Origin: Holdemania sp. Marseille-P2844
Lineage (GTDB): Bacteria > Bacillota_I > Bacilli_A > Erysipelotrichales > Erysipelotrichaceae
Direction: 5' to 3'
NCBI RefSeq assembly: GCF_900120005.1
Contig: NZ_LT635451.1
Coordinates: 1 to 64,000 of the forward strand
Length of the DNA stretch: 64,000 nt
The notes beneath the pieces were generated by a model. It was given only the letters and a program-made list of their open reading frames with translations, made no database searches and had not been told where the DNA came from. The position numbers and the translations under genes were made by a program. The stretch's first letter is position 1. Every line of letters starts with the position of its first letter. Positions 48,913 through 53,981 of the stretch are shown in pieces.

Positions 48913-50637
48913 GTGAACTATAAAGAAGCAGCTCAGGCATATATGAAATTGTTTAAGCAAGTGAAAGTTCGGGATTCTCCGATGATGTATAAAGTGACAA
49001 CCAACCTCTACATGGCGTTGTATCAGCTATATGAAGAATCTGATGTACAGGGGCAAGTTAATATTTGCTACGAAATCAACGATAACGTTCTGAAAAAAGT
49101 TCAAGAAGCGATCGATAGATGCCGGGATGTCCTGATTGCGAATAAATTATTTGATCTATACAGGCATTTGTTCGCAATGTCAGCACGAAGAATCATGGCA
49201 AATATGGCCTTATACGTGGAAGCGCAGAAAACAAAAAAAATCTGGGATAAGACACTGGAAACAATGGAGCCAGTGTTTTTTTATGGATCGAAGTTTGTCA
49301 ACGAAGAACAATTCTTGATGCTTCGCGCTTCATGTATGCCAGGGCTTGGAAAATCGTATTTCGGCAATCTTTTGGTTGCCAATATTATTGGTAATGATCC
49401 CAACGCAACAATCTTGAGAATTACGTACTCGGATGACCTCGTTAAAACGACAACCCGGCAGACGAAAGCTATTATTCAATCAAAAGCGTTCGAAGAAATT
49501 TTTCCTCGGTACACTGGCAAACCTCGATTTAAAAATGATGATAACTACTCTTTCGTCATGTGTGACTGCGAAGATGAAAATCAATTTTTTGCGGTCACAC
49601 GCGATGGACAGTCAACGGGTAAGCGTGCAAAATATCTTATCATCGATGATCTTCTGAAAGGCGAAATTGAATCCAGCAACACTACACTTCATGCACAACT
49701 GGTAAATCGTTTTGATTCGGATTGGACATCTCGTGCCGATGACGATTCGCAGAAGATATGTCTTTTGGGAACCATGTGGGCTCACACAGACCTGTTGAAT
49801 GTGGTTTATGATCGTGAAGTCAATTCTGATGATTGCCAGATGGTGGAAGATGATAACCGGAAGTTTACGATTGCATCTGACGAAATGGCATTTATCAGTA
49901 TTCCTGCTTTGAATGAAAACGGCGAATCAACCTGTCCTTTACGCTTTTCAACAAAAAAATTGATGAAAAAGCAAAGGGAAATGAGCGATTATCTATGGGC
50001 TGCTGTTTATCAGCAGAATCCAATTGCTCCGGAAGGGTTGGGGTTCACATGGTCAGCTCTTCAACAATATGAGCGATTGCCGAAGCTTGAACTGGAAACT
50101 GTGTATGCTTCACTGGACCCGGCACGCCGCGGAAAAAACTATGTTTCTATGCCGATTTTTAACAGATATAAAGGTGATGATCGATATTACCTTGTTGATT
50201 TTCTTTACAAGAAAAAGTCAATGAAAGAACTATATGACGATATCGTTGAGAAAATCATCAGCAATAATGTTTTACAGATTGTTATCGAAAACAACACGGA
50301 TACAAGCTTAAAAGAAGTGCTGGAAGAACGCTTGCGAAGACGCCGATATTACAAATGTACGATCATTGAGAAATACTCTACGGAAAACAAAGAGATCCGA
50401 ATCAGCAATCATCAGGGATCCGTCAGAAATTCGATCGTCTATCCAAAAAAGGGGTTATACCCAGAAAGCACAGATATGGGAAAAGCTATGGCTTCAATAA
50501 CGTCATATAGCTTTGATTATCCGAATAAATTCGATGATGCGATCGATTCTATTGTGTTGTTTATTCAGCAATTTATCGATAACTTATTGAAAATGTCTAA
50601 GCCAAAGTCAATAAATCGACGGAAGCTCGGTATTTAG
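48913..50637 (+). CDS. terL: Terminase large subunit
   Basis: This 574-residue packaging ATPase-nuclease has Walker A-like 'CMPGLGKSYFGNLL' (about residue 140), Walker B 'YLIIDDLLKGE' (about 240) and a C-terminal RNase H-like nuclease with 'VYASLDPARRGKNY' and 'IVIENNTD' plus 'DDAIDSIVLFI'. It starts at GTG 48913 after AAAGGGGGTGG. It pumps DNA into the prohead formed by the portal next door. No clear small subunit is adjacent. Confidence 0.93.
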   Translation: MNYKEAAQAYMKLFKQVKVRDSPMMYKVTTNLYMALYQLYEESDVQGQVNICYEINDNVLKKVQEAIDRCRDVLIANKLFDLYRHLFAMSARRIMANMALYVEAQKTKKIWDKTLETMEPVFFYGSKFVNEEQFLMLRASCMPGLGKSYFGNLLVANIIGNDPNATILRITYSDDLVKTTTRQTKAIIQSKAFEEIFPRYTGKPRFKNDDNYSFVMCDCEDENQFFAVTRDGQSTGKRAKYLIIDDLLKGEIESSNTTLHAQLVNRFDSDWTSRADDDSQKICLLGTMWAHTDLLNVVYDREVNSDDCQMVEDDNRKFTIASDEMAFISIPALNENGESTCPLRFSTKKLMKKQREMSDYLWAAVYQQNPIAPEGLGFTWSALQQYERLPKLELETVYASLDPARRGKNYVSMPIFNRYKGDDRYYLVDFLYKKKSMKELYDDIVEKIISNNVLQIVIENNTDTSLKEVLEERLRRRRYYKCTIIEKYSTENKEIRISNHQGSVRNSIVYPKKGLYPESTDMGKAMASITSYSFDYPNKFDDAIDSIVLFIQQFIDNLLKMSKPKSINRRKLGI

Positions 50638-50650
50638 AAAGGACTGAATT

Positions 50651-52246
50651 ATGACAGAAGAAATAAATCCATCCCCAAGTCCTCAGGATCCATCTCAAGA
50701 TATTCCACCGGAGGAAATAACAGATCCTACGCAGGAAGAAATTCAGAGCAAGATTGACGCTTTAGGCTCAAGGTTTCACTTCGGCCGAAAAAGGATTGTT
50801 ATCCCATTGGAAAAGAACAATCTAACACCAGAAAATATAGGACGATATATCAATCATATCATGGCGTGTCATCAGGAAAATGTGACTGAATATCGGCATC
50901 TTCACGGAATTTACAGAGGCGACCAGGAGATTCTCAAGAAGCGACGTTTATATGATGAGGCAAACAAAGGAAATACAATCATTGTTGAAAACCACGCCTT
51001 TTCAATGGTTGAATTTAAAAAGGGATATCAGTATGGCGATGGCGTAAAACTGTCGATGGAATCGGAAAGTGACTGTCCCCAAGAATTGTCTGAGTTTTCA
51101 AAGATTCTCCGAGCTTGTGACTACGATTCTAAAAACATTGATCTGGCAGAATGCCTTTACACTGCCGGCACAGCCCGAAGAATCACACTGCCGCTAAAAG
51201 AACATGAAAAGAAGTATAACAGAAAGAAAGTTAAGGTCCCATTTCGCACTGAAAACTTGGAATTCGAGGAATCTTTTGTGGTCTACTCTACGGCAATTGG
51301 TCATGACAAATTGTTTGGCGGTGTGGTATCAAAGCAACCGTCTTCCGATATTAACGATCGAAAGTATACGCTTACTATTTATACGGACGATCTAATTTTG
51401 GAATATGATTACACGCCTATGGGGATCGCTCAATTAAAAAGTGAAGGAAAAAATACTATTGGAGTGTGCCCGATCGTCGAATATGATCTGAATAAATCCC
51501 AATTGGGGATCATCGAAGTTGTGGAAACTATTCTCAATGGTATTAATCTAATATCTTCAAACAGTGTTGATAATATCGTAGATTTTGTTAATTCGCTCTT
51601 GGTGTTTTATAACCAAGAAGTGGATATTAAGCGATTAAAAGATTTATTAGAAGCGGGTGCTTTGGAAGTGAATTCAAACGATCCGTCACGCCCTGCGGAC
51701 GTTAAATATTTGGTTAACGCCCTTAATCAAGCAGACGTCCTCGCGAAATATGAGGCTCTTATTACGGTTGCCTATGACATCGCAGGCGTCCCGCGCGCTT
51801 CCGGGACATTTACTTCCGGTGGTGATACAGGCCAGGCGCGATTGCTTGGCGGAGGATGGACCCGAGCGGACATCGTTGCAAAGCAAGACGAAAAGTCAAT
51901 CATCAAAGGTATCAATCAGGATCTCGACGTTATGCTTGCTATTTGTAAAATGGATCCGGCCTGCCCGATCAATGAAATTTACCCAGAAGATATTAAGATT
52001 TCGTTCAACCGAACAAACAGCGATAACTTGCTCGTAAAAACACAGTCGTTGTCCAATTTGATCGCGATGAACTTCCCGAAAGAAGCTGCGCTAAACGCGA
52101 TTGGCCTTGTATCAGGAATTCACGAAGTTTGCCAGCAATGGGAAGCTCAAATAGATAAGTCAAAGCAGGAAGCTGTTGAACTTGCTAAAAATCAAGAACA
52201 AGAAAATAACGTAGAAAACAAAAAAGTTAAGGAACCGGACGAATAA
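50651..52246 (+). CDS. Portal protein (SPP1 gp6-like)
   Basis: This 531-residue protein has 'FKKGYQYGDGVKL' and 'DLNKSQLGIIEVVETILNGINLISSNSVDNIVDFVNSLLVFYN', and 'SGGDTGQARLLGGGW', typical of the SPP1-type portal. The N-terminus is Pro/Glu-rich and disordered. It forms the dodecameric DNA gate at one capsid vertex. AAAGGACTG precedes the ATG. A terminator overlaps its stop codon. Confidence 0.92.
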   Translation: MTEEINPSPSPQDPSQDIPPEEITDPTQEEIQSKIDALGSRFHFGRKRIVIPLEKNNLTPENIGRYINHIMACHQENVTEYRHLHGIYRGDQEILKKRRLYDEANKGNTIIVENHAFSMVEFKKGYQYGDGVKLSMESESDCPQELSEFSKILRACDYDSKNIDLAECLYTAGTARRITLPLKEHEKKYNRKKVKVPFRTENLEFEESFVVYSTAIGHDKLFGGVVSKQPSSDINDRKYTLTIYTDDLILEYDYTPMGIAQLKSEGKNTIGVCPIVEYDLNKSQLGIIEVVETILNGINLISSNSVDNIVDFVNSLLVFYNQEVDIKRLKDLLEAGALEVNSNDPSRPADVKYLVNALNQADVLAKYEALITVAYDIAGVPRASGTFTSGGDTGQARLLGGGWTRADIVAKQDEKSIIKGINQDLDVMLAICKMDPACPINEIYPEDIKISFNRTNSDNLLVKTQSLSNLIAMNFPKEAALNAIGLVSGIHEVCQQWEAQIDKSKQEAVELAKNQEQENNVENKKVKEPDE

Positions 52247-52262
52247 GGAGTCCGGTTTTTTA
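52231..52262 (+). terminator. Terminator overlapping the portal stop codon
   Basis: AACCGGAC-gaataagga-GTCCGGTT followed by TTTTAT. Capsid genes downstream need read-through or a separate promoter. Confidence 0.8.
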
Positions 52263-52264
52263 TA

Positions 52265-52346
52265 CGTCAGAGAAGACGATAAAACGCAAATGACAGAGAA
52301 GTCATTAAAACGCAAAAGCAAAAGACAGAGAAGTCTAAAAAACGCA
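52265..52346 (+). ncRNA. Three tandem covarying hairpins with identical AGAGAA loops
   Basis: Hairpin 1 is CGTC-AGAGAA-GACG (52265-52278), hairpin 2 is ATGAC-AGAGAA-GTCAT (52290-52305) and hairpin 3 is AGAC-AGAGAA-GTCT (52323-52336). Each is followed by an A-rich tail ending AAAACGCA. The loop never varies while stem pairs change together (C-G, T-A, A-T at the outer pair; T-A, A-T, A-T at the third). Spacing of 26 and 32 bases rules out a protein-level repeat. The third lies just before the scaffold gene's ribosome site. Likely an RNA-binding-protein or RNase site array. Confidence 0.7.
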
Positions 52347-52355
52347 GGAGGAATT

Positions 52356-52955
52356 ATGTCTTTACAGGAAATGATCCGCAGAGGAACGAAAATCAAACTC
52401 AACATCCAGCAATTTGCCGAAACAACAGATACTGATCCAAAACCGGAGACGAAAACTGATCCTGAATCAGAGGGTGATCCAGAACCGCCGGCAGAGCCAA
52501 CGGTATCAAAGGCCGCATTTGATAAAGTGGCAAAAGAACTCGCTGAAATCAAAAAGAAGTATAGAGCGAACCTTGATGAAACCGCTCGCCAAAGAGACGA
52601 ACGAGAAGAAGCAGAGAAAGCAACCCGTGCTTTGAAATTGGAGAATGCGCTGCTTAAAAACGGATTCTCAGTTGATGAAATCGAGAGCTTGAGGGATTCG
52701 GTTGCTGATGTGGACGTTGAAGGAATTGTATCAGGGTTTGGCGCCGTCATTGCGGCTCGGTTAAAGGCGAAAGACGATGAGATCGCGGCACTGAAATTGG
52801 AAAGTGTTAAAAGACCGCCTACACCGGCCGGAGAGGGTGGACTTGAGGTAGACAAAATCACAGCGAAAGATTTTGCAAAAATGAATTATCAACAGCGTTT
52901 GGAGCTAAAGGAAAAACATCCAGATGTATACAAGAAATTTACAGGAGGAAAATAA
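52356..52955 (+). CDS. Capsid scaffold protein (DUF4355-like)
   Basis: This 199-residue protein has an acidic, disordered N-terminal part (Asp/Glu/Pro-rich, residues 15-50), a long coiled coil (about 55-110) and a C-terminal 'KDFAKMNYQQRLELKEKHPDVYKKF' segment typical of scaffold proteins. It guides major capsid assembly. The ATG at 52356 has an ideal GCAGGAGGAATT site; an in-frame ATG at 52290 would translate the hairpin region and is less likely. Confidence 0.85.
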   Translation: MSLQEMIRRGTKIKLNIQQFAETTDTDPKPETKTDPESEGDPEPPAEPTVSKAAFDKVAKELAEIKKKYRANLDETARQRDEREEAEKATRALKLENALLKNGFSVDEIESLRDSVADVDVEGIVSGFGAVIAARLKAKDDEIAALKLESVKRPPTPAGEGGLEVDKITAKDFAKMNYQQRLELKEKHPDVYKKFTGGK

Positions 52956-52958
52956 TCT

Positions 52959-53981
52959 ATGCCAAGAACAGGTACTTTTGGCGGCTTTCCATTCGATCCG
53001 GAAGTGTTTTCCGGTTATGTATCGGAACCGTCTTATTTAAAAACAGCAATTATCGCTTCCGGAATTATTCGGGAAGATAATACAATTCGATCTTTGATCG
53101 GAACCAGCGGCAACGTCGGAACTATGCCTTTATATGTCCCGATGGATTACGAAGAAGAAGGAAACGCGGCGTTGAACTACGACGGCATGACAGATAACAC
53201 GCCAATTGAAACATCCGGGAAAAAACAAACCTTTATGTCCGTCCTGAGAATGAAGTCGTGGAAAGCTAAAGATTTCACTCGTGAGCTAACTGGCGCTGAC
53301 CCAATTGGCGATATCGGTCGTAAGGTTGGCGATTACTATCAGCAGACTTGGCAGCATGTTCTGATGGCGATCATGGAAGGCGTCGAGGGAGTTGCAGGGC
53401 TTGAGACGCACAAAACTAATCTCGCAAAAACAGAAGGGACGATCGAAGAATCTGATAAAATCGGTGAAACAACGTTAATTGAATTAGGTCAGAAGGCTCT
53501 TGGTGATATGGCGGATCGTTTCCGTTTGGTTATCATGCATTCGGCCGTTTATACACGTCTATCCATTCTGAAGTTGATTAACTTTAGCAAGTATACAATT
53601 CCAGGAGCAATTGTTGATACTGTTGATCTTCCTACTTACAACGGCAAGATTATTGTCGTTGACGATCGTGGGACAGTAGATACATCGATTGCCGGTTATC
53701 CAAAATACAAAACAATCATGGCGGGTGAAGGAACTTTCTTAACTTGTTCGCGAGATCTGGATAAGCCATATTATGCCGAATATGACCCAGAAACTGCGGG
53801 TGGTGTCGAAATGTTGTATACAAAACAGGGCAGAGTATTACATCCTAACGGATTGTCTATTATTTCGGATAATATCAAAGAAGAATCCCCGACAGATGAG
53901 GAGTTAAAGAATCCGAATAACTGGAAACTGGTTTTCAATCACAAAAACGTCCCGCTGGCCTTCCTGTACACTAACGGTTAA
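52959..53981 (+). CDS. Major capsid protein
   Basis: This 340-residue HK97-fold-type coat protein follows the scaffold with ACAGGAGG. It has 'SEPSYLKTAIIASGIIRED' at the N-terminus, 'GDYYQQTWQHVLMAIMEGVEGVAGL' (spine helix) and a C-terminal 'VEMLYTKQGRVLHPNGLSI'. Position after portal and scaffold, and length, support the call. Confidence 0.9.
   Translation: MPRTGTFGGFPFDPEVFSGYVSEPSYLKTAIIASGIIREDNTIRSLIGTSGNVGTMPLYVPMDYEEEGNAALNYDGMTDNTPIETSGKKQTFMSVLRMKSWKAKDFTRELTGADPIGDIGRKVGDYYQQTWQHVLMAIMEGVEGVAGLETHKTNLAKTEGTIEESDKIGETTLIELGQKALGDMADRFRLVIMHSAVYTRLSILKLINFSKYTIPGAIVDTVDLPTYNGKIIVVDDRGTVDTSIAGYPKYKTIMAGEGTFLTCSRDLDKPYYAEYDPETAGGVEMLYTKQGRVLHPNGLSIISDNIKEESPTDEELKNPNNWKLVFNHKNVPLAFLYTNG

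What the first reader, a model, noticed from the sequence alone, without database searches (positions are those of the whole stretch)
52265..52346. Triple hairpin array with invariant AGAGAA loop and covarying stems
Three hairpins in 82 bases share the loop AGAGAA and a 3' tail ending AAAACGCA, while stem bases change in compensating pairs. Their spacing puts them in different frames, so selection acts on RNA structure. They sit after a terminator and directly before the scaffold/capsid ribosome site. A phage or host protein that reads the loop could control capsid gene expression, or an endonuclease could cut there.
Basis: seen in the sequence. Interest (0 to 1): 0.7.

Follow-up and report, generated by a model that had tools for sequence, protein, structure and literature searches.

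The report
Phage scaffold gene's self-reading hairpin array
Three small RNA hairpins just in front of a virus's capsid-scaffold gene belong to a widespread, uncatalogued RNA element of gut phages, and co-evolution of one hairpin letter with two scaffold residues suggests that the scaffold protein reads its own messenger RNA to control how much of itself is made.

Summary
Each unit is a 4-bp stem, a hexaloop AGAGAA and a tail AAAACGCA. The last tail abuts the Shine-Dalgarno sequence of the scaffold gene. The same array stands before the same scaffold family in hundreds of viral contigs and prophages: 290 of 291 array loci have that family downstream, and 37 of 39 loci fetched by scaffold protein alone carry units. 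No unit occurs elsewhere in 4.6 Mb (both strands). Loop variants AGGGAA and AGTGAA exist. The third loop base co-varies almost perfectly with two residues in the scaffold's only conserved stretch, a basic helix. AGAGAA goes with D/N at 56 (100/101) and never N at 59; AGGGAA or AGTGAA goes with S/T/Q/E at 56 (103/103) and N at 59 (101/103). These are the two best of 185 columns, and 9 of 9 independent tree pairs agree. Best explanation: the scaffold binds the hairpins of its own mRNA and represses its own translation, as known physiologically for phage P22. Binding and repression are inferred, not shown. Rfam's GP20-b has a similar layout before other scaffolds, but the array is not a GP20-b member. 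Endonuclease cutting is unsupported.

The parts
52265..52288 (+). Unit 1: stem CGTC/GACG (52265-52268, 52275-52278), loop AGAGAA 52269-52274, tail ATAAAACGCA 52279-52288
52289..52314 (+). Unit 2: stem AATGAC/GTCATT (conserved 4-bp core TGAC/GTCA), loop AGAGAA 52295-52300, tail to ACGCA 52314
   Evidence: CM R1 40.7 bits
52323..52346 (+). Unit 3 (terminal): stem AGAC/GTCT, loop AGAGAA 52327-52332, tail AAAAAACGCA 52337-52346 directly before the Shine-Dalgarno sequence
   Evidence: CM R1 40.2 bits
52347..52351 (+). Shine-Dalgarno GGAGG of the scaffold gene
   Evidence: same arrangement in relatives
52356..52955 (+). Scaffold protein gene (199 aa), proposed reader of the array
   Evidence: phrog_172 head scaffolding protein E 2.5e-5; same family as 290 of 291 array-linked ORFs
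52509..52565 (+). Codons 52-70: conserved basic helix KAAFDKVAKELAEIKKKYR; D56 and A59 co-vary with loop base 3
52233..52262 (+). Terminator-like hairpin AACCGGAC-GAATAAGGA-GTCCGGTT and T run at the end of the portal gene
   Evidence: fold; terminator-like hairpins precede 61 of 212 arrays against 3 of 190 control stretches
50651..52246 (+). Portal protein gene (context)
   Evidence: phrog_64 E 7e-52; SPP1 gp6-like PF05133
52959..53981 (+). Major capsid protein gene (context)
   Evidence: phrog_247 E 6.5e-68

Best explanation
The array is a multi-site operator in the 5' leader of the scaffold mRNA. Each unit is a 4-bp hairpin whose hexaloop A-GNGA-A resembles a GNRA tetraloop on a non-canonical A.A pair, followed by an A-rich CGCA tail. 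The scaffold protein binds it through the basic face of the first turns of its long coiled-coil helix (window residues K52, D56, K57, A59, K66, K67, R70). Residues 56 and 59 read loop base 3, and the lysines hold the phosphates. Scaffold not sequestered in procapsids fills the units; occupation of the last unit, whose tail touches the Shine-Dalgarno sequence, blocks ribosome entry. Scaffold synthesis is thus matched to assembly. Shown: the structure, its strict link to this scaffold family, and the residue-base co-variation. Inferred: direct binding, repression rather than activation, and cooperativity between units.
For: 1) Strict linkage: 290 of 291 array-linked ORFs match the scaffold HMM; 37 of 39 loci fetched by scaffold protein alone have units against 0 of 514 control windows; 515 units in scaffold leaders and none elsewhere in 4.6 Mb, both strands; no further real copy in the 3.68-Mb own genome. 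2) Co-variation of loop base 3 with residues 56 and 59: AGAGAA-only arrays have D/N at 56 in 100 of 101 and never N at 59; AGGGAA/AGTGAA-only arrays have S/T/Q/E in 103 of 103 and N in 101 of 103. These are the top 2 of 185 columns (normalised MI 0.96 and 1.00; next 0.69), so they exceed positions nearer the RNA. On a tree built without the motif columns, 9 of 9 supported independent pairs agree, p = 0.004. 3) Near natural experiment: L300 (AGAGAA, LDKATSE) and L306 (AGGGAA, LEKANSE), 86% identical outside the motif. 4) Arrays mixing loop types carry some intermediate residues (D56 with N59 in L318/L325; S56 with T59 in L244). 5) The only scaffolds lacking recognisable units (L311/L312) also lack the motif. 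6) Array phages use five capsid-protein PHROGs and several scaffold C-termini, whereas phages whose capsid protein is 46-51% identical to the window's (L039-L042) have another scaffold family and the GP20-b leader: the leader follows the scaffold, not the capsid. 7) The last loop lies mostly 29-37 nt before the start codon. 8) P22 scaffold is autoregulated (Wyckoff & Casjens 1985, title cited in PMC5744158; details from my own knowledge).
Against: No binding, probing or expression data. RNA and scaffold gene are neighbours, so linkage and recombination inflate co-occurrence; the column ranking argues against linkage as the whole explanation but cannot remove it. Loop classes were collected with patterns naming those loops, so other classes may be missed. 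The sense of regulation (repression or activation) is not established. The model of the scaffold has pTM 0.44 (only the helices are confident), with no solved homologue found.
Confidence: 0.68

Rival explanations
1. The scaffold binds the array, but for assembly rather than for control: the mRNA concentrates scaffold (and perhaps newly made capsid protein) and nucleates procapsids near their site of synthesis, or helps to exclude or recruit nucleic acid.
For: All binding evidence is shared with the best explanation; multiple units give multivalency.
Against: The last unit's tight link to the Shine-Dalgarno sequence is not needed for nucleation.
Confidence: 0.13
2. The scaffold-bound array activates or times translation, or couples it to transcription (for example by opposing the upstream terminator), instead of repressing it.
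For: Terminator-like hairpins precede 61 of 212 arrays, and one precedes this array.
Against: Most arrays have no such terminator. The array lies after it, whereas a processive antiterminator would have to act before it. No conserved structure that hides the Shine-Dalgarno sequence and would need opening was seen.
Confidence: 0.08
3. A host protein or another phage protein (capsid protein, late regulator) reads the array; the scaffold residues co-vary only through linkage.
For: The RNA and the scaffold motif are only about 150-220 nt apart in the window, and modular exchange is common in phages.
Against: Residues 56 and 59 beat all other columns, including those nearer the RNA; capsid proteins come from five PHROGs; no units in the own host genome outside the phage.
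Confidence: 0.08
4. The hairpins are endonuclease sites, mRNA-stability elements or decoys of a type III toxin-antitoxin system.
For: Tandem small hairpins with A-rich tails; an upstream terminator-like hairpin could protect a 3' end.
Against: No toxin gene follows; the next gene is a scaffold. Loop variation tracks the scaffold helix. Rfam finds no such family.
Confidence: 0.03

Closest known systems
GP20-b RNA (Rfam RF03003), cis-regulatory candidate
   Same: Same place (directly before a scaffold gene), about two hairpins, A-rich tail ending GCGUA/CCUA before the Shine-Dalgarno sequence; found in the window's nearest capsid relatives.
   Different: The array scores below Rfam's cut-off (13.9 bits against 36.2 in L100) and is not reported at E<=10 in the window. 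Loops differ, unit number varies, and the GP20-b scaffold is PF06810/phrog_194, which the array-scaffold HMM does not match at full length.
Autoregulation of phage P22 scaffolding protein
   Same: Scaffold limits its own synthesis post-transcriptionally (Wyckoff & Casjens 1985, title cited in PMC5744158; details from own knowledge).
   Different: No hairpin array or recognition helix is known to me for P22; protein relationship not tested here.
MS2/R17 coat protein-operator hairpin
   Same: A structural phage protein binding a hairpin at a ribosome site to repress translation (own knowledge).
   Different: Coat of an RNA phage, unrelated protein, single hairpin, another gene controlled.
Lambda N peptide-boxB
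   Same: A basic helix reading a small hairpin with a GNRA-like loop (own knowledge).
   Different: Antitermination, not a scaffold leader; arginine-rich peptide; boxA present.

Membership tests
GP20-b (RF03003) | Score above Rfam gathering threshold (36.2 bits) | tested here: not met
   No GP20-b hit in the window at E<=10; 13.9 bits in L100; none of the 12 AGAGAA loci passed
GP20-b (RF03003) | Location directly upstream of a phage scaffold gene | tested here: met
GP20-b (RF03003) | Associated scaffold of family PF06810 | tested here: not met
   Window and array scaffolds: no PF06810 hit; GP20-b scaffolds hit it at 1e-26 to 1e-45
Autogenous RNA operator of a structural protein | Conserved RNA structure at the ribosome site of the regulated gene | tested here: met
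Autogenous RNA operator of a structural protein | The encoded protein binds the RNA specifically | tested here: inconclusive
   Co-variation of loop base 3 with residues 56/59; no biochemistry possible
Autogenous RNA operator of a structural protein | Expression falls when the protein is in excess | not testable with these tools
   needs reporter assay
Type III toxin-antitoxin RNA | Tandem repeats followed by an endoribonuclease toxin gene | tested here: not met
   The next gene is the scaffold in 290 of 291 loci
Lambda boxB/nut site | boxB hairpin with boxA and an N-like peptide, acting before terminators | tested here: inconclusive
   GNRA-like loop present; no boxA noticed by eye; the array lies after the terminator-like hairpin; no search for an N-like gene

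The most novel reading that the evidence does not exclude
A large clade of gut phages carries a built-in assembly sensor: a tandem RNA hairpin operator read by the scaffold's own coiled-coil helix with a simple, switchable code (D56/no N59 reads AGAGAA; S or T56/N59 reads AGGGAA or AGUGAA), conserved while capsid proteins and scaffold C-termini are exchanged; Rfam's orphan GP20-b is the counterpart for another scaffold family.
Probability: 0.55. Interest if true: 0.85.

Novelty: new variant of a known kind. Interest (0 to 1): 0.8.

Why it matters
It gives a likely molecular answer to how phages match scaffold synthesis to capsid assembly, a question open at the RNA level (to my knowledge) since the P22 work of the 1970s-80s. 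It offers a protein-RNA recognition code testable by two point mutations. It suggests what the orphan Rfam element GP20-b may do. It also adds an RNA family, not matched by any Rfam model in these searches, that marks the scaffold gene in hundreds of uncharacterised gut phages, and it supplies candidate orthogonal translational repressors.

Tried and rejected
Rfam scans of the window and relatives gave no family for the array. Nucleotide and protein comparison with named phages: no match for the window, and only two unannotated faecal records for another array scaffold. A CM hit next to a 23S rRNA gene (L243) suggested a host rRNA factor; 23S leaders of relatives lack it, so it is taken as chance. 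Isolated low-scoring hits in other genomes look like coding or chance matches. Type III toxin-antitoxin decoy, endonuclease site, antitermination site and DNA-binding site were considered; variable but always complementary stems argue for a folded strand rather than duplex DNA. An alternative pairing of unit 3 with the start codon in the window looked like a switch; by eye it is not seen in other leaders such as L016 (not tested systematically). Foldseek and sequence search against PDB found no relative. The P22 paper and Weinberg 2017 are not held.

Full report
WHAT IS THERE. The window holds a prophage late operon: terminase (48913-50637), portal (50651-52246), scaffold (52356-52955), major capsid protein (52959-53981) and tail genes. 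Each is a stem, the loop AGAGAA, a stem and a tail ending AAAACGCA; the last tail touches the GGAGG of the scaffold gene. In 20,000 shuffles of the region, one had a unit and none had two.

STRUCTURE PROVED BY RELATIVES. Collecting 194 distinct units by loop and tail alone, without asking for a stem, showed pairing of stem positions 1-3 in 193-194 and position 4 in 171, against 81-155 (positions 1-3) and about 78 (position 4) in shuffles; positions 5-8 are at chance. On a diverse alignment all four pairs have changes on both sides, the covariation score is 1.16 against 0.21 shuffled, and slid pairings fall below 0.12. Spacings between units occupy all three frames.

WHERE IT OCCURS. Every complete downstream ORF of the first 89 nonredundant arrays belongs to one scaffold family; in the larger set it is 290 of 291, and the remaining one looks like a diverged member. 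In the other direction, 39 loci were fetched by scaffold protein only (some are near-identical phages); 37 have units, against none in 514 control windows. In the array loci 515 units lie in scaffold leaders and none elsewhere in 4.6 Mb, both strands. The own genome of 3.68 Mb has no further real copy. One CM hit beside a 23S rRNA gene in a relative is taken as chance, since other 23S leaders lack it. In one relative (G006) a second array lies in a prophage-like remnant without a scaffold (L255).

THE LOOP VARIES WITH THE SCAFFOLD. Loci found by scaffold protein revealed the loops AGGGAA, AGTGAA and AGACAA besides AGAGAA and GGAGAT. AGNGAA can be read as a GNRA-type tetraloop on an A.A pair, and GGAGAT as the same on a G.U pair (inference). 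Scaffolds are very divergent (14-27% identity to the window's), and the only stretch conserved in all is a basic helix, K52-x3-FDK-xx-SE-xxxx-KK, at the start of a confidently predicted helix 52-101 (overall pTM only 0.44). Arrays with only AGAGAA loops (101) have D or N at 56 in 100 and never N at 59. Arrays with only AGGGAA/AGTGAA loops (103) have S/T/Q/E at 56 in all and N at 59 in 101. Of nine mixed arrays, eight pair AGAGAA with AGGGAA, and these include intermediate residues. Of 185 alignment columns these two are the best predictors of loop class; the next reaches 0.69, and columns nearer the RNA than the motif do worse. Within the subset sharing the N-terminus LLGDAYKEGM both columns separate the classes completely. 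On a tree built without the motif columns the loop class changes 18 times; all nine well-supported independent pairs agree (p = 0.004). L300 and L306 are 86% identical outside the motif and differ in loop base 3 and at both residues. L311/L312, the only loci without recognisable units, have lost the motif.

IT FOLLOWS THE SCAFFOLD, NOT THE CAPSID. Representatives of array phages use major capsid proteins of five PHROGs (247, 544, 1328, 29, 422), and their scaffold C-termini differ. Conversely, the closest relatives of the window's capsid protein (46-51% identity, L039-L042) have a scaffold of family PF06810/phrog_194 and carry Rfam's GP20-b element at the same place. Their scaffold ends in a C-terminal segment similar by eye to the window's, as expected if that end binds the capsid protein. 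The leader therefore changes with the rest of the scaffold.

MECHANISM. The simplest reading is that the scaffold binds the hairpins of its own mRNA. The last loop starts 29-37 nt before the start codon in most phages, so protein bound to the last hairpin and tail should clash with the 30S subunit; repression by free scaffold would match its supply to procapsid assembly. Physiological autoregulation of P22 scaffold is known (Wyckoff & Casjens 1985, title cited in PMC5744158; not held in the library, details from my own knowledge). Shown here: RNA structure, linkage, co-variation. Inferred: binding, repression, cooperativity. Alternatives are ranked in the rivals.

KNOWN OR NEW. No Rfam model matches the array above threshold. 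GP20-b is the nearest listed element and has a similar layout of hairpins with A-rich tails before the Shine-Dalgarno sequence, but it is below threshold for the array and serves another scaffold family, so the array is not filed as GP20-b. I recall GP20-b from the 2017 Weinberg survey as an orphan candidate; that paper is not held. The paper searches found no account of the array or of a scaffold reading such hairpins, but the library lacks most subscription journals.

LIMITS. Sampling of loop classes used loop-specific patterns. Viral contigs give little host information. Linkage between neighbouring sequences cannot be removed entirely. No experiment was possible.

Noticed in passing
L039-L042, L278-L285: Rfam GP20-b leaders also look like tandem hairpins each followed by UAAAA and, last, a GCGUA/CCUA tail before the Shine-Dalgarno sequence; Rfam's first stem may be better drawn as hairpin plus tail.
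   Followed up: partly
L014, L077, L080, L087, L129, L136, L141, L148, L177: A second unit type, loop GGAGAT, is nearly always followed by tail AGCGCA instead of ACGCA/TCGCA, so loop and tail types go together.
   Followed up: partly
array loci: Terminal units always have A before CGCA; upstream units have T in about half (57 of 120), a position-dependent difference without explanation.
   Followed up: no
L255 (G006): A two-unit array without a scaffold gene in a prophage-like remnant.
   Followed up: partly
L021, L146 and similar: Genes for apparent glycosyltransferase-like proteins (judged by eye) inserted between the decoration-like protein and the major capsid protein.
   Followed up: no
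window 52290-52355: An in-frame ATG upstream would extend the scaffold ORF by 22 residues through units 2 and 3; it lacks an evident ribosome site.
   Followed up: no
array loci: Terminator-like hairpins lie within 130 nt upstream of 61 of 212 arrays against 3 of 190 control stretches.
   Followed up: partly
L314, L315, L319: Scaffolds with a deviating recognition helix have a single AGAGAA hairpin with a deviating tail (CACTA instead of CGCA).
   Followed up: no
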